NCBI RefSeq assembly: GCF_019565455.1
Contig: NZ_CP067377.1
Location: 1,488,001-1,552,000, forward strand
Reading direction: 5' to 3'
From: Flavobacterium oreochromis
GTDB lineage: Bacteria > Bacteroidota > Bacteroidia > Flavobacteriales > Flavobacteriaceae
Length of the DNA stretch: 64,000 nt
The notes beneath the pieces are model-generated. The model did no database searches. It saw nothing but the letters and a program-made list of their open reading frames with translations, and was not told where the DNA came from. Positions 31,411-63,540 of the stretch are shown here, piece by piece; the stretch's first letter is position 1, and each line of letters opens with the position of its first letter. A program made the translations under genes and the position numbers.

Positions 31411-32427
31411 TTAAATGCTTTGATAGTTTTTTAAAGCTTTTTCTAAAAGGTATTGCATTCTTTTGCGTAAATGTTCTGGTTTTAAAATTTCAATACCATT
31501 TCCAAAACCTAAAATGATGCGTTCAAATTCAAAGTTTTCTATTAAAAATAAGTGTATAATAGCACTTCCATCTTGATTTCTTTGTATCAAAGATTGCGAT
31601 TGATGCAATGGTTTAGTCATGACATAAGGGGCGTGTTCAGCGTTTACTTTCAATTCTATTTTTTGCGGTTGTAATCCGTTATTTACTGTAACTCCTACCG
31701 TATATTTATAATAAGCATCAGCATTAAACTCTTCGTCTAAATAAGGTGTTTGAAAATCATAATCAATTGAAATAATTCGATCTAATGCTAAATTGGTAAT
31801 AGGTTGGCTTTCTTTCTTTTTTCCAATAACAAACCAGCGATTGTTATATTCTTTGAGTATAAAAGGATGAAACAAAAAATTATTTTCATTTCTTGATTTA
31901 AATGATTTGTAACAGATTTTTAAAACTACTTTTTTAACAATGGCTTGATAAATTTCATCTAAAAAATGCAACCCTTTTAAATTTTCATTTTTATCTAAAT
32001 GAATGATGGGTTGTGTATGCGTTTTTTCGGCATAGATTTTATCTTCCAAACGTTGTAAAATATCCGAAACATCATTAAAAAGGGAGAAATCTTTAAATTG
32101 TTTTAACATCGAAACCGTTTCTGTTAATACATTAATATCGGTTTCAGTTAACGGAATATCGGTGATAGAAAAGTCTTCTTCAGTATAATGATAGTATTTT
32201 TTATCATAAACCTCAATGGGAGCATTATAGCCTAGTTTATCACTGCGCATCATTTGGATATCTAACTGTACCGTTCGTTTACTTACAGAGGTTTCTTTAC
32301 CTTCATATTCGTATAAAGCATTTGAGCATGCTTCTATTAAATCGTCTAAGGTCCATTGACGGTATTTGTTTTGTAAACATTTATCAATCGTTTTATAGCG
32401 GATAAGTGCGTTTTTATTTTGAGCCAT
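31411..32427 (-). CDS. WYL-domain transcriptional regulator
   Basis: This is a 338-residue protein. Residues 1-75 form a winged-helix DNA-binding unit (YKTIDKCLQNKYRQWTLDDLIEACSNAL, then SVSKRTVQLDIQMMRSDK). From about residue 145 comes a WYL domain (EIYQAIVKKVVLKICYKSF, then KEYNNRWFVIGKK), followed by the usual C-terminal extension (IHLFLIENFEFERIILGFGNGIEILKPEHLRKRM). WYL domains are ligand sensors, often tied to nucleic-acid stress and defence. It is in an operon with the HD hydrolase and divergent from the Ro60 gene. It is my best candidate to bind the ten 19-bp operators. That assignment is inference. Confidence 0.9.
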   Translation of the reverse strand: MAQNKNALIRYKTIDKCLQNKYRQWTLDDLIEACSNALYEYEGKETSVSKRTVQLDIQMMRSDKLGYNAPIEVYDKKYYHYTEEDFSITDIPLTETDINVLTETVSMLKQFKDFSLFNDVSDILQRLEDKIYAEKTHTQPIIHLDKNENLKGLHFLDEIYQAIVKKVVLKICYKSFKSRNENNFLFHPFILKEYNNRWFVIGKKKESQPITNLALDRIISIDYDFQTPYLDEEFNADAYYKYTVGVTVNNGLQPQKIELKVNAEHAPYVMTKPLHQSQSLIQRNQDGSAIIHLFLIENFEFERIILGFGNGIEILKPEHLRKRMQYLLEKALKNYQSI

Positions 32428-33107: not shown

Positions 33108-33128
33108 CTACGCAAAATAATTACGTAG
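33108..33128 (+). promoter_or_regulatory. Operator 1 of the island regulon, upstream of the Ro60 gene
   Basis: CTACGCAAAATAATTACGTAG is a near-palindrome with 5-bp arms. A TTTG promoter element follows at 33142-33145, 14 bp after the CGTA arm. It lies between the divergent HD and Ro60 genes and could act on both. It is one of ten matching sites. Confidence 0.85.
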
Positions 33129-33187: not shown

Positions 33188-34705
33188 ATGAAATTTAATT
33201 TTCTTAACAAACAGACAAAAGTGACTTCTAATTATGAAGGAGCAAAAGCCTATAAAATGAATCCTGAAATGGAATTATATACAGCCGTGGTAACTACAGG
33301 ATTAAATGATGTTACTTATGAAAAAAGCAATGATCGCTTACAACGTATTCAACAATTGATAACTAAGTGTAATCCAGAATTTACAGCAAAATTAGCCATT
33401 TATGTTCGTAACCAAATGTATATGCGTTCTATACCAATGGTGCTTACTGTAGAATTAGCAAAGCAGTCACAAGGGACTAGTATTGTGAAAAATACAGTGC
33501 AAGGTGTGGTAAAACGTGCTGATGAAATCACAGAACTATTGGCATATTACCAAATGGCAAATGAACGTAAGGGTACCAAAAAGTTGAATCGTTTGTCTAA
33601 ACAAATTCAAAAAGGTTTGGCGGAATCATTCAATACTTTTGATGAATATCAATTTGCTAAATATAACCGAAGCGGTGAAGTAAAATTGCGTGATGCATTA
33701 TTTTTAGTACATCCCAAAGCAAAAGATGAAAGCCAACAAGCAATCTTTGATAAAATTGCCTCTGATACTCTTGAAACACCTTATACTTGGGAAACAGAAT
33801 TATCAGAATTAGGTAAACAAAAATATGAAAGCGACCAAGCAAAAAAAGAAGCTGTTAAGCAAAAATGGGAAGAATTGATTGATAGTAACCGTTTAGGTTA
33901 TATGGCAACGATGCGTAACTTGAGAAATATAGTACAAGCTGAAGTATCTTTTGAGTATATAGATAAAGCATGCAAATATTTATCTAACGAAAAAGCGATT
34001 GCCAATTCGAAGCAATTGCCTTTTAGATTTTTAGCGGCATATCGTGAAATCAAAGAGCTGAAATCAAAATTTACGGCTATGATTCTTGAAGCTCTTGAAG
34101 AAGCAGTAATTCTAAGTTCTAAAAACATCAAAGGTTTTGATGGTACTACTTCCGTAGTAATTGCTTGTGACGTTTCGGGATCAATGCAACAACCTATTTC
34201 AGCTAAAAGTAAAGTATTGCTTTATGATATAGGTTTGATGTTGGGTATGCTAATGCAATCGAGATGTAAGAATGTGGTTAGCGGTATGTTTGGTGATAAA
34301 TGGAAAATTATCAATATGTCACCACGAAATGTATTGGCGAATGTTCAAGAATTTTACCGTAGAGAAGGTGAGGTGGGATATTCTACTAATGGTTATCTAG
34401 TTATCGAAGATTTGATACAGCGTAAAGAAATTGTAGATAAAGTAATGTTGTTTACGGATGTTCAAATGTGGAATAGTAACCAAACACAGCATACATTTGA
34501 AAACTCTTGGAATCGTTACAAACAAATAGCGCCAAAAGCTAAATTGTATTTGTTCGACTTGGCAGGTTATGGTCAAGTGCCATTAGATATCAAACGAAAT
34601 GATGTTCATTTGATAGCGGGTTGGTCAGATAAAATATTTGACGTTCTTGATGCTATTGAAAATGGTGAAAATGCATTAACAAGAATTAAAGAAATAACAC
34701 TTTAA
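33188..34705 (+). CDS. rsr: Ro60-family protein (TROVE plus vWA)
   Basis: This is a 505-residue protein. Residues 10-320 form the alpha-helical TROVE ring (MNPEMELYTAVVTTGLND, then YMRSIPMVLTVELAKQ, then LRNIVQ) that binds Y RNAs outside and misfolded RNA ends in its cavity. Residues 320-505 form a von Willebrand A domain with a MIDAS motif (D328-V-S330-G-S332, then FTD at 422-424). Bacterial Ro proteins work with Y RNA and polynucleotide phosphorylase in rRNA maturation and decay. The gene carries operator 1. The array of Y-RNA-like genes starts only 46 bp after its stop, which strongly supports the assignment. No RtcB gene is present in the window. Confidence 0.95.
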   Translation: MKFNFLNKQTKVTSNYEGAKAYKMNPEMELYTAVVTTGLNDVTYEKSNDRLQRIQQLITKCNPEFTAKLAIYVRNQMYMRSIPMVLTVELAKQSQGTSIVKNTVQGVVKRADEITELLAYYQMANERKGTKKLNRLSKQIQKGLAESFNTFDEYQFAKYNRSGEVKLRDALFLVHPKAKDESQQAIFDKIASDTLETPYTWETELSELGKQKYESDQAKKEAVKQKWEELIDSNRLGYMATMRNLRNIVQAEVSFEYIDKACKYLSNEKAIANSKQLPFRFLAAYREIKELKSKFTAMILEALEEAVILSSKNIKGFDGTTSVVIACDVSGSMQQPISAKSKVLLYDIGLMLGMLMQSRCKNVVSGMFGDKWKIINMSPRNVLANVQEFYRREGEVGYSTNGYLVIEDLIQRKEIVDKVMLFTDVQMWNSNQTQHTFENSWNRYKQIAPKAKLYLFDLAGYGQVPLDIKRNDVHLIAGWSDKIFDVLDAIENGENALTRIKEITL

Positions 34706-34750
34706 TTTAGAAATATAATAGCCCTGTCTTTTGCAGGCAGGGCATTAAAG

Positions 34751-34902
34751 AAAAACAAGTGTCGTAGATAAGTGTTACTTCGCTGTTAACGACGTGGTCG
34801 CGGGTTCGAATCCCGTCTCTTCCGCAAAAGAATAAGTATTTGGGAGAGTAGCTCAGTGGTAGAGCACGATATATTTCATTTATCGATTTTTACCTTGTTT
34901 TT
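34751..34902 (+). ncRNA. Y-RNA-like RNA 1 with a circularly permuted tRNA in its loop
   Basis: The ends pair (AAAAACAAG with CTTGTTTTT). Next come the conserved GTGTCGTA, the inner stem GATAAGTG paired with CATTTATC, and TTACTTCG. The loop then reads CTGTTAA (an Asn GUU anticodon loop), variable region, T arm GCGGG-TTCGAAT-CCCGT, the acceptor 3' strand CTCTTCC, a linker of about 19 nt, the acceptor 5' strand GGGAGAG (34842-34848), and the D arm GCTC-AGTGGTA-GAGC. The order 3' half then 5' half is that of a permuted tRNA. It lies in the 3' region of the Ro60 transcript with no promoter of its own. Confidence 0.8.
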
Positions 34903-34907
34903 ATACC

Positions 34908-34943
34908 AACGAAAAATAATTGCGTAGTAAAAAAATAAATTTG
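34908..34943 (+). promoter_or_regulatory. Operator 2 with a TAAATTTG promoter box, start of Y RNA 2
   Basis: AACGAAAAATAATTGCGTAG (34908-34927) is followed 13 bp after its CGTA by the TTTG of a full TAAATTTG box (34936-34943). The transcript should begin near 34950, at the 5' arm of Y RNA 2, and needs no protein-coding ORF. Confidence 0.82.
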
Positions 34944-34950
34944 TCAAGAA

Positions 34951-35041
34951 AATATAAAATGCCGTTTTAAAAGTGTTCCATCGTTCCAAGATAGTGAAAT
35001 AGAAATATTTAAAACACTTTTAGTCCATTGCTTTTATATAT
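34951..35041 (+). ncRNA. Y-RNA-like RNA 2 with a minimal loop
   Basis: The outer arms TATAAAA and TTTTATA, the conserved ATGCCGT, the inner stem TAAAAGTGTT paired with AACACTTTTA, and the post-stem motif CCATCG are all present. The loop is short (about 28 nt) and contains no tRNA or rRNA signature. The inner stem sequence differs completely from its neighbours while pairing is kept, which is covariation. Confidence 0.68.
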
Positions 35042-35115
35042 ACAAAGAGTGCCGTTGTAAAAAGTTACTTCGATTCCAACAAAGCCCAACTTTTTATAGT
35101 AATCGCCTCTTTTTT
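35042..35115 (+). ncRNA. Y-RNA-like RNA 3 with a minimal loop
   Basis: The outer arms AAAGAG and CTCTTT, the conserved GTGCCGTTG, the inner stem AAAAAGTT paired with AACTTTTT, then TTACTTCG and a loop of only about 15 nt. The spacing after Y RNA 2 is nearly zero, so RNAs 2 and 3 probably share the promoter at 34936 and are separated by processing. Confidence 0.65.
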
Positions 35116-35119
35116 AAAC

Positions 35120-35155
35120 AATGAAAAATAATTGCGTAGTGATAAAATAAATTTG
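35120..35155 (+). promoter_or_regulatory. Operator 3 with a TAAATTTG promoter box, start of Y RNAs 4 to 8
   Basis: ATGAAAAATAATTGCGTAG within 35120-35139 is followed by TAAATTTG at 35148-35155, at the same spacing as operator 2. It should drive transcription into Y RNA 4 and probably the rest of the array. Confidence 0.82.
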
Positions 35156-35174
35156 TTCCTTGAAAAAGCTAAAA

Positions 35175-35338
35175 ATATTTAAAAAGAAAAGATGTCGTAA
35201 AGAAGAGATACTTCGAAAATTAGTAAGAACCGTAGGTTCGATTCCTACACTTGTTTAAGTTATCAGGGATAATACTCAAGATAGCTCAATGGTAAGAGCA
35301 CTCCTGGACTTTTCTTGCTTTTTACTCTTAGGTTTTTA
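35175..35338 (+). ncRNA. Y-RNA-like RNA 4 with permuted tRNA pieces
   Basis: The conserved ATGTCGTAA, the inner stem AAGAAGAG paired with CTTTTCTT (one G-U), and TACTTCG are present. The loop carries a T arm GTAGG-TTCGATT-CCTAC (35232-35248), a linker hairpin TTATC-AGG-GATAA, then CTCAAG and a D arm AGCTCAATGGTAAGAGC (35283-35299). A short acceptor-like pairing CTTG/CAAG joins the two halves. As in RNA 1 the T arm precedes the D arm. The outer stem is A/T-only and weaker than in the other copies. Confidence 0.72.
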
Positions 35339-35348
35339 AAAATAAAAC

Positions 35349-35479
35349 AATCAAGTGCCGTAAAAGAGAGTTACTTCGCCTTTCCCGCTAGAGATATAAG
35401 TAAAACCTTATATAGATTGAGAAATCTATTAGTTTAATAAAAATACTATTATAGTCTCTCTTTGCATTTTGCCTTGATT
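35349..35479 (+). ncRNA. Y-RNA-like RNA 5 with a three-hairpin loop
   Basis: The outer arms AATCAAG and CTTGATT, the conserved GTGCCGTAA, the inner stem AAAGAGAG paired with CTCTCTTT, then TTACTTCG. The loop of about 75 nt contains ATATAAG/CTTATAT and TAGATT/AATCTA hairpins and an AGT/ACT pair. There is no TTCGA T-loop or D-arm signature. If it mimics another RNA I do not recognise which. Confidence 0.7.
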
Positions 35480-35488
35480 TAAAAATAA

Positions 35489-35618
35489 ATATTCAAGTGT
35501 CGTAAAAAGAATTGCTTCGATTTAGGTTCCGGTATTTCAGGTTCGAGTCCTGACTCCGAGAGGAGTAGTGTAATGGTAACACCCTGTATAAGTTTCTTTT
35601 TGACTGTAACCTTGATTT
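35489..35618 (+). ncRNA. Y-RNA-like RNA 6 with a permuted tRNA closed by a GAGA tetraloop
   Basis: The outer arms TCAAG and CTTGA, the conserved GTGTCGTAA, the inner stem AAAAAGAA paired with TTCTTTTT, then TTGCTTCG. The loop holds a T arm TCAGG-TTCGAGT-CCTGA, an acceptor-like stem ACTCC (35553-35557) closed by GAGA onto GGAGT (35562-35566), and a D arm GTGT-AATGGTA-ACAC. The acceptor ends that would be free in a normal tRNA are fused by a tetraloop. Confidence 0.78.
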
Positions 35619-35660
35619 TAAAAATAAAACAATATGATAAAACACACCCTAAAAGACACG

Positions 35661-35685
35661 TTCTATTAAGTTTAACTTAATAGAA
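35661..35685 (+). promoter_or_regulatory. Perfect hairpin in front of the small ORF at 35691
   Basis: TTCTATTAAGTT and AACTTAATAGAA form a 12-bp stem with a single-base centre, ending 5 bases before the ATG. It could regulate translation of the small protein or separate it from Y RNA 6. Confidence 0.55.
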
Positions 35686-35690
35686 AACGT

Positions 35691-35942
35691 ATGAAAAATT
35701 GTAAAAAACTAAAAGATGCTTTTGGTTTAAATGAATTAGGAATTATAGCTATTCCAAAAAAAATGTCGGGTACTGGTTTTTCAAGAATTTTATATGGAAA
35801 TTTTATGGGATGTTCCAGATGTTTTCCACACGGGTATGAAACCATTAATTCAAAGGAAAATAAGTACCAACGCAATTGGAAAAAATACAGAAAAACACAA
35901 TGGAAAACTAGTGTCGTAAAAAAGTCATACATCGCTGGTTAA
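35691..35942 (+). CDS. Small basic protein with a CSRCFPHG motif, embedded in the RNA array
   Basis: This is an 83-residue ORF. The middle GNFMGCSRCFPHGYETINSK followed by RNWKKYRKTQWK is a coherent, strongly basic motif that looks like a real small-protein family rather than random translation. The last dozen residues are encoded by the start of Y RNA 7 and may be accidental. A second small basic protein at 55218 also has an RKW-rich segment. The role is unknown. An RNA-binding accessory to the Y RNAs is a reasonable guess. The ORF lies between Y RNAs 6 and 7 in the same direction. Confidence 0.55.
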   Translation: MKNCKKLKDAFGLNELGIIAIPKKMSGTGFSRILYGNFMGCSRCFPHGYETINSKENKYQRNWKKYRKTQWKTSVVKKSYIAG

Positions 35943-36016
35943 TTTTGGTTCGAGTCCAAACTCTTGAAAAAGAGAAAATGACTTTTTGCTTATTACCTAG
36001 TAAACATTGGTTGTTG
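35894..36016 (+). ncRNA. Y-RNA-like RNA 7 with a T arm and acceptor-like hairpin
   Basis: The outer arms ACTAG and CTAGT extend into CAATG/CATTG. The conserved GTGTCGTAA, the inner stem AAAAAGTCAT paired with ATGACTTTTT, then ACATCG. The loop carries a T arm TTTGG-TTCGAGT-CCAAA (35944-35960) and a hairpin CTCTT-gaaa-AAGAG in the place of the acceptor. The D arm is absent. The change of the outer stem from CAAG to CTAG on both sides is covariation. Confidence 0.74.
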
Positions 36017-36023
36017 TAAATTA

Positions 36024-36259
36024 AAAACAATCAAGTGTCGTAAAGAAGAGTTACTTCGTACTATAACGGCCCTAAGGTTGCGTAGTTCGGGCGACCGAAT
36101 GAGCGAAGTTGGGTTAAAAACCAACAGGGTAAAAGTTTTCGCAAGAAAATGGAAGTCTCTCGTAGATGTAGAATTACCGGTTCACTGTCCGTACAACGGA
36201 TAAGAACGGCTGCTCTTTTAAGAGCAATAGCTCTTCTTGCTTTTTACCTTGATTGTTTT
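36024..36259 (+). ncRNA. Y-RNA-like RNA 8 with a 23S rRNA helix 69-71 mimic
   Basis: This is the longest member. The outer arms AAAACAATCAAG and CTTGATTGTTTT pair over 12 bp, and the inner stem AAGAAGAG pairs with CTCTTCTT, preceded by GTGTCGTA and followed by TTACTTCG. The loop starts at 36061 with 22 nt matching the 23S rRNA segment around E. coli position 1914-1935 at 20 positions (CTATAACGG-C-CCTAAGGT-T-GCG). It continues through several hairpins and includes ACAACGGATAA (36193-36203), resembling 23S near 2430. The Ro60-binding ends are kept, so this looks like a Y RNA displaying an rRNA piece. Confidence 0.78.
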
Positions 36260-36295
36260 AATAAATTACTTAAAAAGTGTTTAAAAATTAGTTTG

Positions 36296-37023
36296 ATGAA
36301 TAGCTTAAATTATCAAATTTTTGGTTCACAAGATTCACAAGATGTAGATGTGGTTTTCTTTATCGATAAAATGCCTGAAACCATTCAGGAAAAATTGAAT
36401 TTATCAAAAGAATACAGTGCAATTTTACAACCCGAATTTCCAACAAAAAATATTAATCCTAATTTGGCTGTTCTAGAAAATGGTATAGTCAAACACGTTT
36501 ATAAAGGCACGGTCGACGAATTGAATAATGCGTTATACTATACCTATGGTTTACATAATCAAAAGTTTGATAACCAAATTATAAAATCTTTACCAAGAGA
36601 TATTGATTTGAAGTTCTTAAGAAGCAGCCGAATAATCCTTTCTTTTTGAGCAAAACAAAATATAGAACAAGTATAAAAGACGCACTGCGAAATAATTTGC
36701 ATCACAAAATTCAAGTTCTGAAAGAGATTGATTTGGCAACTTTAGCCAATTTTGGAAAGTCAAAAAATGAGATAACTATTCTCAAAAGTATTGCTTTTCA
36801 AATAGGGCAAAGTATGGCACTTCATAATGGTAAGGAATGCTATACCAAAAGTCAAATTGCCGACTGTTTTCCTGAATTAAGAAGTTACCTCGTAAGGGAA
36901 ATCAATTCTGATTTGAGTAATTTGCAATTTTGGTTAATTAAGTATGTAGAAATACTTGAAATTAGAGCCACAAAAATGAACTATTTAGAGGAGTATGAGT
37001 ATATAAATACTTACGTAAAATAA
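36296..37023 (+). CDS. Minimal nucleotidyltransferase, paralogue 1, one frameshift
   Basis: The ATG at 36296 starts MNSLNYQIFGSQDSQDVDVVFFID, the GSx...DxD active site of the polymerase-beta-type nucleotidyltransferase superfamily. Upstream in-frame codons lie inside Y RNA 8, so the longer ORF start is rejected. The frame changes at 36640-36646 in TTTCTTTTTG (SRIILSF then LSKTKYRTSIKD). The rest is helical (FQIGQSMALHNGKECYTKSQIADCFPELRSYLVREI). The joined length is about 242 residues. A role in adding nucleotides to RNA ends, or as an RNA-repair sensor, is inferred from the neighbourhood. Confidence 0.75.
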
Positions 37024-37078: not shown

Positions 37079-37848
37079 ATGAAAACAGATTTTCCTTATC
37101 CTTATTATATTTATGGTTCATCCGATTCTACTGATACTGATGTTGTCATAGTGATATCTAAAAATGAAATGCCAGCAACCCAAGAACAGCGTAAAAATTT
37201 TGTTCTAGATTTGAAAAATATATACGAGTTTAATTGGAATGCGACCTTGGCAGTTATTGAAAATGGAATGATGATTGATACTATTTATACAAAATCTTGG
37301 ATCGATTCACTTAATAATGCGTTACTAAAAACATACTGCCATCATAGTCAGGTATATCCTTTACTGATAAATCATAAGATAAAACGGAATAAAGTATTGG
37401 CTATTTATAAAGCTGTTCGAACAGTTTTAACTATGTTAACACGTACTAGCTATAGATCTGAAATTCGTCCCATTTTAAAAGGAATCCATGATTTCAATTT
37501 AAAAGTAGAAGTGTTAAAAAAATAGACTTTGAAAATATTGAAACATTCAATCAAAAAAATACTTCGGATGCAGATGTTTGGAAGATTATTGCTTTTTATG
37601 TAGGACAGAACATCGCTTTAATTAAAGAGGATGAAGAAATATACACTAAAGCCGATTTAATAGTAAAATTTCCTGAAATGCTTCCTTTTGTGTACAGACA
37701 AAATATAACCATTGCTGATAAAATAATTTTGCAAAGATTTATAAGTCAATGGATAGCTTTGATTCAAAATTTTGGTGTTTTTAAATCAGAAAATGGTTTT
37801 TTGTATTGTAATGATGAATATGCGGATATGCTAAATGAAAAGTATTGA
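37079..37848 (+). CDS. Minimal nucleotidyltransferase, paralogue 2, one frameshift
   Basis: This is a tandem paralogue of the preceding gene. MKTDFPYPYYIYGSSDSTDTDVVIVIS carries the same GS-DxD site, and the two share NWNATLAVIENGM, SLNNALLKTYCHHSQ and the FYVGQNIALIKEDEEIYTKADLIVKFPEM block. The frame changes near 37512-37520 in an A run. The joined protein has about 255 residues. A stop at 37846 is followed 8 bp later by operator 4, so the two transferases are probably the distal part of the Ro60/Y-RNA transcription unit. Confidence 0.75.
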
Positions 37849-37856
37849 TTTTTACT

Positions 37857-37875
37857 TACGCAAAATAATTACGTA
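37857..37875 (+). promoter_or_regulatory. Operator 4, upstream of the bpX-type operon
   Basis: TACGCAAAATAATTACGTA, with the TTTG element at 37890-37893, 14 bp downstream. It drives the gene cluster 37959-44619. Confidence 0.85.
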
Positions 37876-44650: not shown

Positions 44651-44669
44651 TACGCAAAATAACTGCGCA
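44651..44669 (+). promoter_or_regulatory. Operator 5, upstream of the Rnl1-like ligase
   Basis: TACGCAAAATAACTGCGCA, the most degenerate copy, with TTTG at 44683-44686, 13 bp downstream. Confidence 0.78.
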
Positions 44670-44703: not shown

Positions 44704-45729
44704 ATGGATTTACAACTTTTACAGCAAATGATTGCGCAAGACTACATTAAGGTCAATAAACACCCTAATGCCGAATTGTATATCTATAATTACACCCAAT
44801 TTACCCAATTTGATCGTATTTGGAATGAAGTTACTTTAGCTTGTAGAGGATTAATTTTAGATGATGAACAGAAAATTATAGCAAGACCTTTCCCGAAGTT
44901 TTTCAATTTAGGCGAACCAGAAGCCAAAGAATTGCCTGCTTCATCGTTTCAAGTTTTTGACAAATTGGATGGATCGTTAGGGATTTTATACTGGTTAGAG
45001 GATAAACCTTTTATAGCGAGTCGGGGTTCGTTTTCGAGCGAGCAATCAGATAAAGCCAACGAATTGTTGTATAAAAAGTATGGGGATGTGATTCCGTATC
45101 TTAATCCGAGTAATACCTATTTATTTGAAATCATTTACCCTGAAAATAGGGTAGTGGTCGATTATGGAAACGAAGAGAAATTGGTACTTATCGGCATTAT
45201 AGAAACAAAAACAGGAATCGAATTGCCTCTTGTCGATATAGGTTTTCCATTAGTGAAAGAGTATAATCATTTTTCTAAAATTGAAGAGTTAACGCAACAG
45301 CAATGGGATAATCACGAAGGTTTTGTGATTCGTTTTGAAAATGGATTTAGAGTGAAAGTTAAATTTGAAGAATATGTGCGTTTGCACCGAATTCTAACCC
45401 AATTTTCCACGGTAGATATTTGGGAATGTGTATCGGGTGAGTCTTCTTTACAGGTATTGCTAGAGAATGTACCCGATGAGTTTTTTGAATGGGTTAAAAA
45501 AGTGGAATCTGATTTAAAAAAGCAATTCCAAGCAATTGAGGAAGATTGTAAGAATTATTATAAAGTACTAGAAACCAGAAAAGAGACTGCTTTTTATTTT
45601 TTAGCACATCCACATAAAGATGTTTTGTTTAATATGCTAAACGAAAAGGATTATACTAAAACCATTTGGAGAAAAATAAAACCTAAATTTGAAAAGCCAT
45701 TCGGCACCTGTCAGGTTTCCAAAACCTGA
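44704..45729 (+). CDS. T4 Rnl1-like RNA ligase
   Basis: This is a 341-residue ATP-dependent RNA ligase. Motif I is F-D-K87-L-D-G-S, the lysine that carries AMP. A conserved arginine upstream sits in ACRGLIL (R48). Motif III-like FEIIYPENRVVVDYG, motif IV EGFVIRF and motif V RVKVKFEEYVRLH are all present. T4 Rnl1 repairs tRNA cut in the anticodon loop. The gene is the first of an operon with the Hen1 fusion and a C39-like protein, and operator 5 precedes it. The C-terminal part (about 245-341) is an Rnl1-type helical extension that may recognise tRNA. Confidence 0.9.
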   Translation: MDLQLLQQMIAQDYIKVNKHPNAELYIYNYTQFTQFDRIWNEVTLACRGLILDDEQKIIARPFPKFFNLGEPEAKELPASSFQVFDKLDGSLGILYWLEDKPFIASRGSFSSEQSDKANELLYKKYGDVIPYLNPSNTYLFEIIYPENRVVVDYGNEEKLVLIGIIETKTGIELPLVDIGFPLVKEYNHFSKIEELTQQQWDNHEGFVIRFENGFRVKVKFEEYVRLHRILTQFSTVDIWECVSGESSLQVLLENVPDEFFEWVKKVESDLKKQFQAIEEDCKNYYKVLETRKETAFYFLAHPHKDVLFNMLNEKDYTKTIWRKIKPKFEKPFGTCQVSKT

Positions 45730-48871: not shown

Positions 48872-48890
48872 AACGCAAGATAATTGCGTA
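48872..48890 (+). promoter_or_regulatory. Operator 6, upstream of the kinase-phosphatase
   Basis: AACGCAAGATAATTGCGTA, with TTTG at 48905-48908, 14 bp downstream. Confidence 0.82.
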
Positions 48891-48925: not shown

Positions 48926-49836
48926 ATGAAAACACCCGAAATAAAAATATTGATAGGCGCAACAGGAGCAGGGAAATCAACTTTTGCTGAATATTGGTTA
49001 CGAACTGAGCCTAACTGGATGCGTGTGAGTCGAGACGATTTTAGAATGATGAATTTTAGTAACACGAACTTAGCACCAGAAGACGAGTCAAAAATCACCG
49101 AGATGGTCGATGGATCTATTACGGCATTGATTAACAAAGGGGTGAATGTATTAGTTGATGCTACGCATTGTCGTGCAGAGTACATCAATACGTATATTGA
49201 TAAATATATAGAAAAAGCACATATTAGTTTCAAGGTTTTTGATGTAGAGTTAGAGGAGTTAAAGAAGCGATGTAAAAAAGGTTTGAAGAAACAGGTCGGT
49301 TTATTCCAGAAAAAGTCACTGAAAAGTACTTTAAAGAATTGCAATTCTTGAAATCCAATTTCGATTTTTCCACCCGAAAAAGACAGCCATTGGATAACAT
49401 ACTTATCGCGCAAAATGAAGCATTGCCTAAAGCTATTATCTGTGATTTAGACGGAACATTAGCCTTAATGAATGGGAGAAACCCCTTTGATGCGAGCAAA
49501 TGTGATGAAGATTTGTTGAATGTCCCTGTGGCCAATGTGTTGAAAAATTACCACCAATTAGGATATAAGATATTATTGGTTTCGGGTAGAGAAGATAAAT
49601 TCCAAGCACCTACGTTGCGTTTTTTTGGAAAAACACCAAATCCCATTTGATGAATTGTTAATGCGAAAAACAAAAGACAGCCGTAAAGATTCGATCATCA
49701 AAAAGAAATTTACAAAGAGCATATTGTAGAAAAATACTTCGTTGAATTTGTATTGGACGATAGAAATCAGGTCGTAGATACGTGGCGAAAAGAATTGCAT
49801 TTGCCTTGTTTTCAGGTTTTTTATGGGGATTTTTAA
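48926..49836 (+). CDS. T4 Pnkp-type 5'-kinase/3'-phosphatase, several frameshifts
   Basis: The joined protein has about 300 residues, the size of T4 polynucleotide kinase. The P-loop is GATGAGKSTFA, with the kinase arginine-aspartate strand in MRVSRDDFRM. The phosphatase part has DLDGTLALMNGRNPFD, KILLVSGREDKF, and VLDDRNQVVDTWRKELHLPCFQVFYGDF at the end, a close parallel to T4 Pnkp. Frame changes near 49310, 49640 and 49705 interrupt it, each in an A or G run. It heals ends (5'-OH to phosphate, 3'-phosphate or cyclic phosphate to OH) for the ligases in this island. It has no ligase domain of its own. Confidence 0.88.
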
Positions 49837-53427: not shown

Positions 53428-53446
53428 TATGTAAAATAATTGCGTA
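53428..53446 (+). promoter_or_regulatory. Operator 7, upstream of the zinc-ribbon SDR
   Basis: TATGTAAAATAATTGCGTA, with a TACTTTTG promoter box at 53456-53463. The TTTG starts 13 bp after the operator. Confidence 0.82.
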
Positions 53447-54947: not shown

Positions 54948-55023
54948 GGAAGTAATAGTTTAATTTTGGAAAAATGTCCGATCGCTAATCGGGAGATTTA
55001 GGTTCGAATCCTAATAGCTTCCA
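54948..55023 (+). ncRNA. tRNA-like cloverleaf 2, anticodon GCT with C33
   Basis: The acceptor GGAAGT pairs with GCTTCC (one T-G). The anticodon arm TCCGA-TCGCTAA-TCGGG has loop T32-C33-G34-C35-T36. The T arm TTAGG-TTCGAAT-CCTAA is perfect. C33 instead of U33, a weak D stem, and the absence of the long variable arm required for a serine GCU tRNA suggest it does not decode serine normally. It lies downstream of the SDR gene. Confidence 0.6.
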
Positions 55024-55032
55024 ATCATATAA

Positions 55033-55105
55033 GAAGGCGTTAGTTTAATTGAAAGAATACTAGCCAGTCAAGCTAGAGTTTTGGGTTTGAGTCCCAAACG
55101 CCTTC
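55033..55105 (+). ncRNA. tRNA-like cloverleaf 3, anticodon GTC with A33
   Basis: The acceptor GAAGGCG pairs perfectly with CGCCTTC. The anticodon arm is CTAGC-CAGTCAA-GCTAG, a perfect 5-bp stem with loop C32-A33-G34-T35-C36. The T arm TTGGG-TTTGAGT-CCCAA carries T56 instead of C56. The structure is strong, but the invariant U33 and C56 are both changed. A run of T follows and could end transcription. Confidence 0.65.
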
Positions 55106-55148
55106 TTTTTGAACTTTACAAGTTTTTCAAAATCTATTATTACAATAC

Positions 55149-55167
55149 TACGTAAAATAATTTCGTA
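55149..55167 (+). promoter_or_regulatory. Operator 8, upstream of a small basic protein
   Basis: TACGTAAAATAATTTCGTA, with TTTG at 55181-55184, 13 bp downstream. The ORF start at 55182 would lie on the promoter, so the ATG at 55218 is used. Confidence 0.8.
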
Positions 55168-57755: not shown

Positions 57756-57774
57756 TCCGTAAAATAATTACGTA
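57756..57774 (+). promoter_or_regulatory. Operator 9, upstream of the RlaP-type transferase
   Basis: TCCGTAAAATAATTACGTA, with TTTG at 57788-57791, 13 bp downstream. The ORF start at 57789 is inside the promoter, so the ATG at 57810 is chosen. Confidence 0.8.
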
Positions 57775-57809
57775 CTTTAGAGTCAGCTTTGTCACTTAAA
57801 ATACGCATT

Positions 57810-58865
57810 ATGACGATACAAGACCTTAAATCGCAAAATCTAATCCTTTTCGAAGTGATTTCGGGAAGTAAGTCCTTTGGGTTAGATACTCCAACATCAG
57901 ATACTGATATAAAAGGTGTATTTTACATGCCTAAAGATAAATTTTATGGTTTAGAATATATTCCACAAATTAGCAATGAAACGAATGATATTGTATATTA
58001 TGAATTAGGTCGTTTTGTGGAATTGTTATTAAAAAATAATCCAAATATTTTAGAGGTTTTAGCTTCTCCAGAAGATTGTATTTTATACAAGCATCCTTTA
58101 ATGAATCAATTAAAAATTGAAGACTTTCTTTCTAAACTTTGCAAAGATACTTTTGCAGGTTATGCCATAACTCAAATCAAAAAAGCAAGAGGATTAAAAA
58201 AGAAAATTGTGAATCCAATGAGTAAAGAACGTAAAAGTTTGTTAGACTTTTGTTCTGTTTTGCAAGGTTATGATTCTATTTCACTAGCCAATTGGTTATT
58301 TAAATATCAATTAAAGCAAGAACAATGCGGTTTGATTAATATTCCTAATGCTAAAGGAATATATGCACTATTTTATGATGAACATAAAAAGTTAGGGTAT
58401 AAAGGCGTTATAAAAAATGAACTTTCTAATGAAGTATCCGTTTCCTCTATTCCAAAAGGAGCAAAAGAACTGGGCTATCTATCATGTAATTTAGAAGGCT
58501 ATTCCAAATATTGTAAAGAATATGCAACGTATTGGGATTGGATTGAAAAACGTAATGAAGAGCGTTACGAAACCAATCAGCTACACGGAAAAAATTATGA
58601 CAGCAAAAATATGATGCACACCATACGTTTACTCCAAACAGCTCAACAAATTTTAGAGACACAAAGATTGAATATCCGTGTTACAAATCGTGAAGAATTA
58701 TTGACTATCAAATCAGGGGCAATGGAATATGATACGTTATTACAAAAAGCAGATGATTTAATTACTTCTATTGAAAAATTAACTGAATCATCACTATTAC
58801 CCGAATTACCCAATAATAGAGCAATAGCGATTTTAATAAACATACGAAAACAACTTTATAATTGA
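57810..58865 (+). CDS. RlaP/YcgL-family nucleotidyltransferase (COG3541)
   Basis: This is a protein of about 351 residues from the ATG at 57810 (MTIQDLKSQNLILFEVISGSKSFG). The active site is GSKSFGLDTPTSDTDIKGVFYMP, the GSx10DxD of the polymerase-beta fold. ELGRFVELLLKNNPNILEVL and the following helices match the RlaP family, named as an RNA-repair polymerase-beta-type protein. It probably adds or transfers a nucleotide at damaged RNA ends. It is unrelated in sequence to the two minimal transferases at 36.3-37.8 kb apart from the catalytic pattern, so the island has at least three polymerase-beta-fold enzymes. Confidence 0.85.
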   Translation: MTIQDLKSQNLILFEVISGSKSFGLDTPTSDTDIKGVFYMPKDKFYGLEYIPQISNETNDIVYYELGRFVELLLKNNPNILEVLASPEDCILYKHPLMNQLKIEDFLSKLCKDTFAGYAITQIKKARGLKKKIVNPMSKERKSLLDFCSVLQGYDSISLANWLFKYQLKQEQCGLINIPNAKGIYALFYDEHKKLGYKGVIKNELSNEVSVSSIPKGAKELGYLSCNLEGYSKYCKEYATYWDWIEKRNEERYETNQLHGKNYDSKNMMHTIRLLQTAQQILETQRLNIRVTNREELLTIKSGAMEYDTLLQKADDLITSIEKLTESSLLPELPNNRAIAILINIRKQLYN

Positions 58866-60325: not shown

Positions 60326-60399
60326 GGTTTCATAGCTCAATAGGATAGAGCGTTCGCCTACGAAGCGAAAGGGTTCAGGTTCGACTCCTGATGAAATCA
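60326..60399 (+). tRNA. tRNA-Arg (anticodon ACG)
   Basis: The acceptor GGTTTCA pairs with TGAAATC. The D arm is GCTC-AATAGGATA-GAGC, the anticodon arm TTCGC-CTACGAA-GCGAA with U33 and ACG at 34-36, and the T arm TCAGG-TTCGACT-CCTGA. All invariant bases are in place, so this looks like a functional tRNA. Confidence 0.9.
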
Positions 60400-60428
60400 C
60401 AAAAGCGTTCTTTAGAAAGGGAACAACA

Positions 60429-60513
60429 GGCTCAATTTCCTCGAAGTTTCGAGATTTCCTGACAATCTCTCAGGACCATCACACTCCCAATATTCATTGG
60501 GAGTGTGGGAGCC
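60429..60513 (+). ncRNA. Cloverleaf-like RNA without a T loop, downstream of tRNA-Arg
   Basis: The outer stem GGCTC/GAGCC encloses three arms: TCGAA-GT-TTCGA, CCTGA-CAATCTC-TCAGG (5-bp stem, 7-base loop, like an anticodon arm), and a long hairpin CACTCCCAAT-ATTC-ATTGGGAGTG. The middle arm matches the anticodon arm of the Asp-like RNA at 60797 except in the loop. TTCGA T-loop and D-loop signatures are absent. It may be a processed tRNA-like RNA or a structured 3' trailer. Confidence 0.55.
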
Positions 60514-60557
60514 CTAAAAGAAAATAAATGGTTAATAAATAATAATTTTAAAGATAT

Positions 60558-60650
60558 ATGTTACATACAATAGAAAATAAATTTCAATATCAACCGGTTG
60601 CATTTAGCGATGCGCTACCATTCAAATACAAAACACAAAGGTGTGATTAA
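60558..60650 (+). CDS. Small ORF (30 residues) with terminator
   Basis: MLHTIENKFQYQPVAFSDAL, followed by PFKYKTQRCD. A strong terminator (60681-60707) ends the unit. It is similar in layout, not in sequence, to the 60072 ORF. The evidence for coding is only the arrangement. Confidence 0.35.
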   Translation: MLHTIENKFQYQPVAFSDALPFKYKTQRCD

Positions 60651-60680
60651 ATAGCTATATATAAATAGTTTTCAATCTTG

Positions 60681-60707
60681 AGCACCTTATTTAAGGTGCT
60701 TTTTTTA
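60681..60707 (+). terminator. Terminator after the 30-residue ORF
   Basis: AGCACCTTA-TT-TAAGGTGCT followed by T6. Confidence 0.9.
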
Positions 60708-60796
60708 TGAATAATAGACCTTATAGTTTAAAAATAGAATAGCTGACTTCTATTCAGCAGGTGCAAGTGAAAGTCTTGCTAAGGTTAAAAAAATAC

Positions 60797-60870
60797 GGGC
60801 TCATTGTGGTAAAGGTTATCCTACCTGACTGTCTCTCAGGTGATACGAGTTCGACTCTCGTATGAGCCGC
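60797..60870 (+). tRNA. tRNA-Asp-like (anticodon GTC), imperfect
   Basis: The acceptor GGCTCA pairs with TGAGCC over 6 bp, with a G-G mismatch or a bulged G at the end. The anticodon arm is CCTGA-CTGTCTC-TCAGG with U33 and GTC. The T arm ACGAG-TTCGACT-CTCGT is perfect. Position 37 is T instead of a purine and the D stem is weak. It may be a functional accessory tRNA or a mimic. Confidence 0.6.
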
Positions 60871-60875
60871 TAAAG

Positions 60876-60948
60876 TGATTTGTGATGTAATGGGTTAGCA
60901 TAAGAGACTTTGACTCTCTTTGTTCTGGTTCGAATCCAGACAAATCAA
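60876..60948 (+). tRNA. tRNA-Gln (anticodon TTG)
   Basis: The acceptor TGATTTG pairs with CAAATCA. The D arm ATGT/GCAT has one T-G pair, the anticodon arm is AGAGA-CTTTGAC-TCTCT with U33 and TTG, and the T arm TCTGG-TTCGAAT-CCAGA. Overall it looks like a functional tRNA. It lies 6 bp after the Asp-like RNA. Confidence 0.82.
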
Positions 60949-60953
60949 CAAAA

Positions 60954-61026
60954 CTAGGAAGATAACGATTGGTTGTTTACCTGCATTGGAAGCAGGAGGT
61001 TGCAGGTTCGAGTCCTGCTTCCTAGA
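60954..61026 (+). tRNA. tRNA-Pro (anticodon TGG)
   Basis: The acceptor CTAGGAA pairs perfectly with TTCCTAG. The anticodon arm CCTGC-ATTGGAA-GCAGG has U33 and TGG, and the T arm is GCAGG-TTCGAGT-CCTGC. The D arm (AACGATTGGTTGTT) has a short stem, but D-loop GG is present. Confidence 0.82.
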
Positions 61027-61033
61027 CAAAAAA

Positions 61034-61108
61034 TGGATTAGTGGTGTACACGGTGTGCACGCCTGTCTGAAGAACAGGAGGTATTCGTTCGAGTCGAATC
61101 TGGTCCAC
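61034..61108 (+). tRNA. tRNA-Phe (anticodon GAA)
   Basis: The acceptor TGGATTA pairs with TGGTCCA (two T-G pairs). The anticodon arm is CCTGT-CTGAAGA-ACAGG with U33 and GAA, and the T arm is ATTCG-TTCGAGT-CGAAT. The U1 start and C at the discriminator are unusual for a phenylalanine tRNA, so it may be charged poorly or differently. Confidence 0.7.
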
Positions 61109-63503: not shown

Positions 63504-63540
63504 TGCGCAAAATAATTGCGTAGCTTATTTTGAATCTTTG
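63504..63540 (+). promoter_or_regulatory. Operator 10, upstream of the right-end permuted tRNAs
   Basis: TGCGCAAAATAATTGCGTA (63504-63522), with TTTG at 63537-63540, 14 bp downstream. No protein-coding ORF follows, so the product is a non-coding RNA. Confidence 0.84.

What the first reader, a model, noticed from the sequence alone, without database searches (positions are those of the whole stretch)
34751..36259. An array of eight Y-RNA-like RNAs directly behind the Ro60 gene, with exchangeable loops
Eight tandem units share the frame GUGYCGUA - inner stem - UACUUCG - variable loop - inner stem - GCUUUUUACC - outer stem. The inner stems differ in every copy yet pair each time: GATAAGTG/CATTTATC, AAAGAGAG/CTCTCTTT, AAAAAGTCAT/ATGACTTTTT, AAGAAGAG/CTCTTCTT and others. 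The outer stems covary too (CAAG/CTTG, CTAG/CTAG). This is strong evidence for conserved structure. Known bacterial Y RNAs number a few per genome and may carry a tRNA-like domain (YrlA). A row of eight with loops of different identity looks like a library of client or adaptor modules for one Ro60 protein.
Basis: partly seen in the sequence, partly recalled or inferred. Interest (0 to 1): 0.95.

Follow-up and report, generated by a model that had tools for sequence, protein, structure and literature searches.

The report
Ro60 RNA array mimicking tRNAs, rRNA
Behind the gene for the RNA-binding protein Ro60, this bacterium carries eight predicted small RNAs that share one stem but end in different heads, three of which read as tRNA bodies with their two halves swapped and one of which copies a core piece of ribosomal RNA; they likely serve as interchangeable adaptors that would steer Ro60 to tRNA and ribosome repair.

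Summary
Eight units (34754-36255) follow a Ro60 gene, sharing a bulged outer stem, a compensating inner stem and an ACUUCG-type loop. Such units follow Ro60 in 47 of 48 related loci (median 5, up to 12; the 48th ends at the gene). A pair the scan did not select for is kept in 232 of 234 distinct units (19 as U-G) and in 95 of 95 further ones. The loops are not arbitrary: ARAGORN calls a tRNA in 71 of 87 mid-sized heads (40 of 47 further ones) once their halves are swapped, 0 in shuffles. Unit 8 copies 23S rRNA around helix 69/70; its module is found strongly in 6 of 395 genomes of the order, each time just behind Ro60. The permuted tRNA head is the known YrlA design, though these units score below Rfam's YrlA cut-off; the many-headed array, the rRNA head and a GGGGAGG head look new to me, but key papers were not readable. 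Here the array lies in an RNA-repair island whose promoter-linked palindrome, in exact form, occurs nowhere else in the genome. Likely function: a set of Ro60 adaptors for damaged tRNA and 23S rRNA. Expression, Ro60 binding and partners are untested.

The parts
33188..34705 (+). Ro60 gene (TROVE plus vWA domain, 505 aa)
   Evidence: Pfam TROVE 98.2 bits, cut-off 23; D328-x-S330-x-S332 and D424 invariant in 17 homologues
34754..34901 (+). Unit 1: head 34783-34876 is a circularly permuted tRNA body (T-arm, acceptor hairpin, D-arm)
   Evidence: Model hit E 2.7e-10; Rfam YrlA 36.8 bits over the head, below the cut-off of 69; ARAGORN calls a tRNA after swapping halves
34954..35039 (+). Unit 2: short A/U-rich head, loop CCAUCG
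   Evidence: Model hit E 5.1e-10; fold z -3.1; missed by the motif scan
35044..35114 (+). Unit 3: bare 15-nt loop, no head
   Evidence: Model hit E 1.1e-14, but it is one of the model's own sequences
35187..35333 (+). Unit 4: permuted tRNA head 35216-35308
   Evidence: Scan; model hit 23.4 bits, E 0.003, over 35187-35258 only; ARAGORN after swapping halves; Rfam YrlA 21.1 bits, E 0.17; fold alone not significant
35350..35480 (+). Unit 5: A/U-rich, degenerate tRNA-like head 35379-35455
   Evidence: Model hit E 4.2e-10; not called a tRNA itself, its orthologue in L001 is; its D-arm half is closest to the island tRNA-Asp
35492..35618 (+). Unit 6: permuted tRNA head 35520-35593, closest to tRNA-Gln
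   Evidence: Model hit E 2.3e-6; Rfam YrlA 27.9 bits, E 0.002; ARAGORN after swapping; halves match tRNA-Gln(ttg) best or tied best; fold alone not significant
35691..35942 (+). Small conserved reading frame inside the array, function unknown
   Evidence: 74 homologues; also behind Ro60 in L001, L003, L104, L105, L109
35906..36004 (+). Unit 7: T-arm hairpin plus a second hairpin as head
   Evidence: Model hit E 5.6e-8; fold
36030..36255 (+). Unit 8: 170-nt head 36059-36228 beginning with a 23S rRNA helix-69/70 copy (36060-36088)
   Evidence: 25 of 29 bases identical to own 23S, 0 of 300 shuffles as good; predicted mini-hairpin CGU(ACUAUA)ACG; module strongly found in 6 of 395 genomes of the order, each behind Ro60
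33111..33125 (+). Palindromic element 77 nt upstream of Ro60, followed by an ANNTTTG promoter-like box
34910..34924 (+). Same element before unit 2
35122..35136 (+). Same element (one mismatch) before unit 4
37859..37873 (+). Same element before the bpX4/MoxR genes
44653..44667 (+). Same element (one mismatch) before the T4 Rnl1-like ligase gene
48874..48888 (+). Same element (one mismatch) before the polynucleotide kinase frame
53430..53444 (+). Same element (one mismatch) before an SDR-like gene that precedes the tRNA-Ser/Asp pair
55151..55165 (+). Same element after the tRNA-Ser/Asp pair
57758..57772 (+). Same element before the RlaP gene
63506..63520 (+). Same element behind the Rnl2 gene, near the window's end
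31411..32427 (-). WYL-domain regulator, candidate (inferred) regulator of the palindrome regulon
   Evidence: Pfam WYL and WCX; homologue upstream of Ro60 in 31 of 48 loci
44704..45729 (+). T4 Rnl1-like RNA ligase
   Evidence: Pfam RNA_lig_T4_1 66.8 bits
45754..48270 (+). Hen1 N-domain fused to PNKP ligase domain
   Evidence: Pfam
48926..49650 (+). Polynucleotide kinase-like and PNKP phosphatase reading frames (two frames)
   Evidence: Pfam AAA_33 and HAD_PNKP
57789..58865 (+). RlaP nucleotidyltransferase (RNA repair family)
   Evidence: Pfam RlaP 83.9 bits
62460..63494 (+). Rnl2-type RNA ligase
   Evidence: Pfam RNA_ligase and T4_Rnl2_C
54948..55106 (+). Island tRNA-Ser(gct) and tRNA-Asp(gtc)
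60326..61108 (+). Island tRNA group: Arg(acg), Asp(gtc), Gln(ttg), Phe(gaa) by ARAGORN and two more by Rfam only

Best explanation
This is an array of eight predicted noncoding RNAs that share one stem, likely the Ro60-binding stem, and carry different heads (permuted tRNA bodies, a T-arm hairpin, bare or short loops and one copy of 23S rRNA helix 69/70), and it likely works as a set of interchangeable adaptors that would steer a single Ro60 protein to different tRNA- and rRNA-handling partners when cellular RNA is damaged. Shown: the common stem and its covariation, what the heads resemble, the place behind Ro60, and a palindrome with a promoter-like box shared by Ro60, the array and RNA-repair genes. 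Inferred: the units are transcribed and processed; Ro60 holds the bulged lower stem; the head, tied to the stem where a tRNA's anticodon arm would be, is recognised by proteins that normally hold the tRNA elbow and acceptor (modification enzymes, PNPase, or the island's ligases and kinase), the 23S head by proteins that handle helix 69/70, and bare units leave Ro60 without a partner. A WYL-family activator would switch the set on together with ligases, kinase and spare tRNAs.
For: Scaffold: covariation, model hits limited to the array but for one at E 0.92 elsewhere in the genome. Place: units downstream of Ro60 in 47 of 48 loci (the 48th, L046, ends at the gene) and in 36 of 47 further loci with only ~1.5 kb of flank; 14 of 15 genomes with model hits have Ro60, within 2 kb, same strand. 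Heads: 71 of 87 and 40 of 47 called tRNA after swapping halves, 0 in shuffles; T-arms in 140 of 159; 23S copy with 0 of 300 shuffles as good for each of six modules, behind Ro60 in 6 of 6 strong genome hits. Context: RNA-repair genes, RtcB behind the array in 29 of 48 loci, exact palindrome 6 times in the genome, all in this island, the ten sites with up to one mismatch each followed 26-27 nt on by an ANNTTTG box. Prior knowledge: the YrlA tRNA-like domain is a substrate of DusA and TruB and the Y RNA tethers Rsr to PNPase (passages, PMC8394870); Ro60 RNPs with Y RNAs were precipitated from Bacteroides thetaiotaomicron (passage, PMC11277228).
Against: No expression, Ro60-binding or partner data. 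No single host tRNA is copied: unit 1's halves are closest to different tRNAs, so head identity may be drift around a common elbow shape rather than distinct addresses. Many units (74 of 249 by regex class) have no head. Of 24 Ro60 genomes in the phylum sample, 10 give no model hit; the scan finds units in four of these (L104, L108, L115, L119) and none in six. Eleven of 47 further Ro60 loci show no unit by the scan (the flanks are short). One genome with a weak model hit has no Ro60 (G084). The 23S module beyond its first ~32 nt resembles nothing in 23S, and only 6 of 36 Ro60 genomes of the order have it. RtcB is not in this island but about 1 Mb away.
Confidence: 0.55

Rival explanations
1. 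Decoys: the heads are likely competitive inhibitors that soak up ribotoxins or anticodon nucleases by offering tRNA elbows and 23S helix 69/70 that cannot be cut usefully.
For: The repair-island setting; in the permuted heads the Y stem takes the place of the anticodon arm; the idea is raised for YrlA in PMC7790460 (passage); the 23S piece spans a functional centre (recalled).
Against: A decoy would not obviously need Ro60 or a conserved shared stem; bare units have nothing to offer; one gene copy per head would give low dosage unless strongly expressed (inference).
Confidence: 0.2
2. Ordinary YrlA tethers in many copies: all heads do the same job (hold PNPase or cover the Ro60 opening) and their diversity is drift without separate partners.
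For: T-arm in most heads; the order T-arm, acceptor, D-arm equals the Rfam YrlA model; PNPase tethering is known for Deinococcus (passage).
Against: Distinct module classes are conserved separately across genera (GGGGAGG unit, 23S unit); the 23S heads have no T-arm by the pattern used.
Confidence: 0.2
3. Debris: tRNA and rRNA gene fragments captured behind Ro60, without function.
For: tRNA genes lie beside some arrays (L035, L044).
Against: Compensating changes in the stems, the same permuted order in heads of many loci, the fixed place; debris would not be permuted in one way.
Confidence: 0.03

Closest known systems
YrlA bacterial Y RNAs (Rfam RF02553; Salmonella rsr-yrlBA-rtcBA operon)
   Same: Next to Ro60; head with T-arm, closed acceptor hairpin and D-arm in permuted order inside the Y stem (model structure line); link to RNA repair genes
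   Different: Below the family cut-off (best 36.8 bits in the window, 43.6 in five scanned relatives, cut-off 69); up to 12 units per locus; several head classes including a 23S copy; a WYL regulator nearby (RtcR was not searched for)
Deinococcus Y RNA / RYPER (Rsr, Y RNA, PNPase; passages)
   Same: One Ro60 protein, RNA as a tether with a separable head
   Different: Many heads; partners unknown; tethering not tested here
Permuted tRNA genes and permuted tmRNA
   Same: 3' half precedes 5' half with a linker at the acceptor end
   Different: No anticodon arm; embedded in a Y stem; only weak matches to tmRNA models
MoxR-vWA-beta-propeller (bpX) ternary systems
   Same: bpMoxR, bpX4, bpX2 and bpX1 genes lie behind the array
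   Different: A neighbour preceded by the same palindrome, not part of the RNA array

Membership tests
YrlA (RF02553) | Score at or above Rfam's gathering cut-off (69 bits) | tested here: not met
   36.8, 27.9 and 21.1 bits for units 1, 6, 4; up to 43.6 in five scanned relatives
YrlA (RF02553) | tRNA-like domain with T-arm, acceptor hairpin, D-arm in permuted order | tested here: met
   Units 1, 4, 6 of 8; 71 of 87 distinct 58-125 nt heads other than GGGGAGG, 40 of 47 further ones
Bacterial Y RNA | Encoded next to a Ro60 gene | tested here: met
   47 of 48 loci; 14 of 15 genomes with model hits
Bacterial Y RNA | Bound by Ro60 through a conserved bulged lower stem | not testable with these tools
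   A stem with one bulged U and a covarying Y-R step exists; binding not measured; the comparison with animal Y RNAs is recalled
Bacterial Y RNA | Head is a substrate for TruB and DusA | not testable with these tools
   Known for YrlA (passage)
Ro60 | TROVE domain | tested here: met
   98.2 bits, cut-off 23
Ro60 | Ro60-type vWA domain above Pfam's cut-off | tested here: not met
   24.4 bits, cut-off 27.7; DxSxS motif nevertheless invariant in 17 homologues
Rsr equivalog (NF041674) | Score above NCBIfam cut-off (900) | tested here: not met
   30.1 bits
tRNA | Recognised as tRNA in native order | tested here: not met
   None in the window's array; 0 of 87 and 0 of 47 heads with an anticodon arm put in at native order. 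Against: on raw sequence of 25 loci ARAGORN does call three tRNAs that overlap units (one in L006, two in L041)
rsr-yrlBA-rtcBA RNA repair operon | RtcB ligase gene beside the array | tested here: inconclusive
   Not in this window (own RtcB about 1 Mb away) but behind the array in 29 of 48 loci

The most novel reading that the evidence does not exclude
Ro60 in Bacteroidota is an RNA-programmed hub: one protein, a genomic cassette of up to a dozen Y RNAs, each with a distinct mimic of a translation RNA (several tRNA bodies, a minimal T-arm, the GGGGAGG fold, 23S helix 69/70) as an address tag, induced as one regulon with an RNA-repair and tRNA-replacement kit. The 23S-tagged unit would be a Y RNA that mimics ribosomal RNA, a kind I know of nowhere else.
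Probability: 0.35. Interest if true: 0.92.

Novelty: new variant of a known kind. Interest (0 to 1): 0.8.

Why it matters
In the passages I could read, work on bacterial Y RNAs rests on one or two RNAs in a few species. An array in which one stem is kept and the head varies, across Flavobacterium, Chryseobacterium and relatives, turns the tether idea into a direct experiment: pull down each head and see who comes. The rRNA head and the shared promoter element would also tie Ro60 to damaged tRNA and 23S rRNA at once, which bears on the old question of what Ro60, a human autoantigen, surveys.

Tried and rejected
Single-sequence folding does not support units 4 and 6. The GGGGAGG module (37 of 249 units by regex) is not a permuted tRNA by the ARAGORN test (0 of 34); in the five loci scanned against Rfam the best overlap with it was one chance-level YrlA match (L035, 24.7 bits, E 0.66); RNAalifold shifted its T-arm, so I claim no full structure for it. 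Beyond its first ~32 nt the 23S-like module matches nothing in 23S, and six sequences are too alike for a covariation verdict. Among ten island proteins PADLOC finds only the WYL regulator (WYL and Cas3c models) and a marginal RtcR-type AAA match to the MoxR protein. Ro60 relatives occur in 95 of 50,697 phage records, all under 60% identity; I did not look for arrays beside them. The class counts come from regular expressions; one listed unit (L017 at 1874, 147-nt head, score 9.3) is probably spurious. The scan demands paired stems, so stem counts are biased; the Y-R pair and the further loci are the fairer tests, though those loci are partly from the same genera. Two T-loop variants and the promoter-box pattern were widened after looking at the data. 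ARAGORN was given many cuts and trims of each head, and the same for its shuffle. A Ro60 structure prediction had not finished at seven collecting calls and is not used. Papers: only search listings and term passages were seen; Chen 2014, Sim and Wolin 2018, Wang 2018, Burroughs and Aravind 2016, Sim 2020 and Greiling 2018 are not held, so earlier reports of such arrays cannot be excluded.
Full report
What is there. Directly behind a Ro60 gene (33188-34705; Pfam TROVE 98.2 bits) lie eight units between 34754 and 36255. Each has an outer stem, one bulged U, a G-C and a Y-R step, an inner stem, an ACUUCG-type loop and then a loop or head of 15 to 170 nt. A covariance model made from 31 head-less units of several species finds seven of the eight in the window and nothing else there; in the whole 3.54 Mb genome its only match outside the array at E <= 1 is at E = 0.92.

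More than chance. A search with this Ro60 protein gave 48 loci. A motif-and-stem scan finds units behind Ro60 in 47 of them and in the window, 249 in all; 45 of the 48 loci have three or more, two have one, the most is 12; L046 ends right after the gene. The scan finds none in the window outside 34600-36400 on either strand, and none upstream of Ro60 or on the opposite strand downstream in 24 further loci. Stems covary, but since the scan selects pairing the fairer test is the Y-R step: 117 U-A, 96 C-G, 19 U-G, 1 C-A and 1 A-G in 234 distinct units, and 60 C-G, 32 U-A and 3 U-G in 95 further distinct units. In Bacteroidota genomes drawn evenly, 24 of 296 have Ro60 and 15 of 296 have model hits; 14 of the 15 have Ro60, and in these 14 the hits lie on the same strand within 2 kb downstream. 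The fifteenth (G084, E = 0.002) has no Ro60. Of the ten Ro60 genomes without a model hit, four show units by the scan and six do not.

What the heads are. Rfam's YrlA model matches units 1, 6 and 4 below its cut-off (36.8, 27.9, 21.1 bits; cut-off 69), and its structure line has the order T-arm, acceptor hairpin, D-arm. I therefore swapped the two halves of every distinct 58-125 nt head outside the GGGGAGG class, put a generic anticodon arm between them and ran ARAGORN: 71 of 87 became tRNAs, 0 of 87 dinucleotide shuffles, 0 of 87 joined in native order. In further loci: 40 of 47, 0, 0 (four GGGG heads set aside). Units 1, 4 and 6 of the window pass, unit 5 does not. On raw sequence ARAGORN does call three tRNAs overlapping units in 25 loci (L006, L041). 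A T-arm is present in 140 of 159 distinct heads longer than 22 nt, against a mean of 2.15 in shuffles. The GGGGAGG class (0 of 34 in the swap test) is a separate conserved module with a T-arm; it is not in this window. Heads do not copy one host tRNA: unit 6 is closest to tRNA-Gln, unit 1's halves to Thr/Asp/Gly and to Lys.

The rRNA head. Unit 8's head starts with 25 of 29 bases of the genome's own 23S rRNA; in a relative the match is 29 of 32, its first two bases coming from the scaffold loop (L134). For six modules none of 300 shuffles each scored as well, while the rest of each module was unremarkable. By recalled E. coli numbering this is about 1910-1941, the loop and 3' strand of helix 69 and helix 70; the predicted fold closes CGU(ACUAUA)ACG, using the CG of the scaffold loop. 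A model of this module hits 7 of 395 genomes of the order (Flavobacteriales, inferred from the named relatives); the six strong hits (E 5e-25 or better) lie 0.7-2.8 kb behind Ro60 on the same strand, the seventh (E = 0.006) is 2.4 Mb away and is taken as chance. Ro60 itself is in 36 of the 395.

Surroundings. The 30 kb behind Ro60 hold a T4 Rnl1-like ligase, a Hen1-PNKP-ligase fusion, polynucleotide kinase and phosphatase frames, RlaP, an Rnl2 ligase, bpX/MoxR genes and eight tRNA genes (six by ARAGORN, two more by Rfam). Five of their isoacceptors (Ser gct, Asp gtc, Arg acg, Gln ttg, Phe gaa) also exist elsewhere in the genome. A palindrome CGNAAAATAATTNCG occurs ten times in the window with at most one mismatch, all on the + strand (0.34 expected); the exact form occurs six times in the genome, all in this island (near-matches elsewhere were not sought). 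Each of the ten is followed 26-27 nt on by an ANNTTTG box. The exact form occurs on the + strand of 29 of 48 loci, in 25 of them 77-86 nt upstream of Ro60. A WYL regulator is upstream in 31 and RtcB downstream in 29 of 48 loci, some of which have short flanks. I infer one damage-induced regulon; no induction data were seen.

Mechanism. From PMC8394870 and PMC7790460 (passages): YrlA's tRNA-like domain is modified by DusA and TruB, Y RNA tethers Rsr to PNPase in Deinococcus, and a decoy role has been suggested. From PMC11277228 (passage): Y RNAs were precipitated with Ro60 from Bacteroides thetaiotaomicron. With one stem and many heads, the adaptor reading is the simplest: the stem would hold Ro60, the head choose the partner. 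In slot 1 the scaffold stays while the head changes (47 of 84 pairs), in the GGGGAGG slot it does not (0 of 199); drift under weak head constraint could also do this.

Novelty. The permuted tRNA head is the known YrlA design. The array of many heads, the 23S head and the GGGGAGG head were not in any listing or passage that I saw, but the central papers are not held, so this is not proof of novelty. I rate it a new variant of a known kind.

Noticed in passing
35691-35942: Conserved ~75-aa reading frame inside the array with a GC..CFPHG motif; 74 homologues, many in Chryseobacterium under an implausible transporter name; also behind Ro60 in L001, L003, L104, L105, L109.
   Followed up: partly
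36283-37023 and 37079-37848: Two tandem genes behind the array that look nucleotidyltransferase-like by eye (Pfam finds nothing), each appearing as two reading frames in different frames.
   Followed up: no
54948-55106 and 60326-61108: Island tRNAs that are divergent second copies of Ser, Asp (twice), Arg, Gln and Phe isoacceptors; L035 and L044 also carry tRNA genes beside their arrays.
   Followed up: partly
L002:9000-9220: By eye, tRNA-like ends (D-arm, T-arm, acceptor) with a ~130-nt insert at the anticodon position, directly before rtcB.
   Followed up: no
L022:7578-7660 and L038:7581-7671, minus strand: Rfam Flavo-1 RNA directly behind Ro60, antisense, before the array.
   Followed up: no
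G000:C1:1668900-1669897: A partial 23S rRNA (about its first thousand positions, in pieces) beside full rRNA genes in the window's genome.
   Followed up: no
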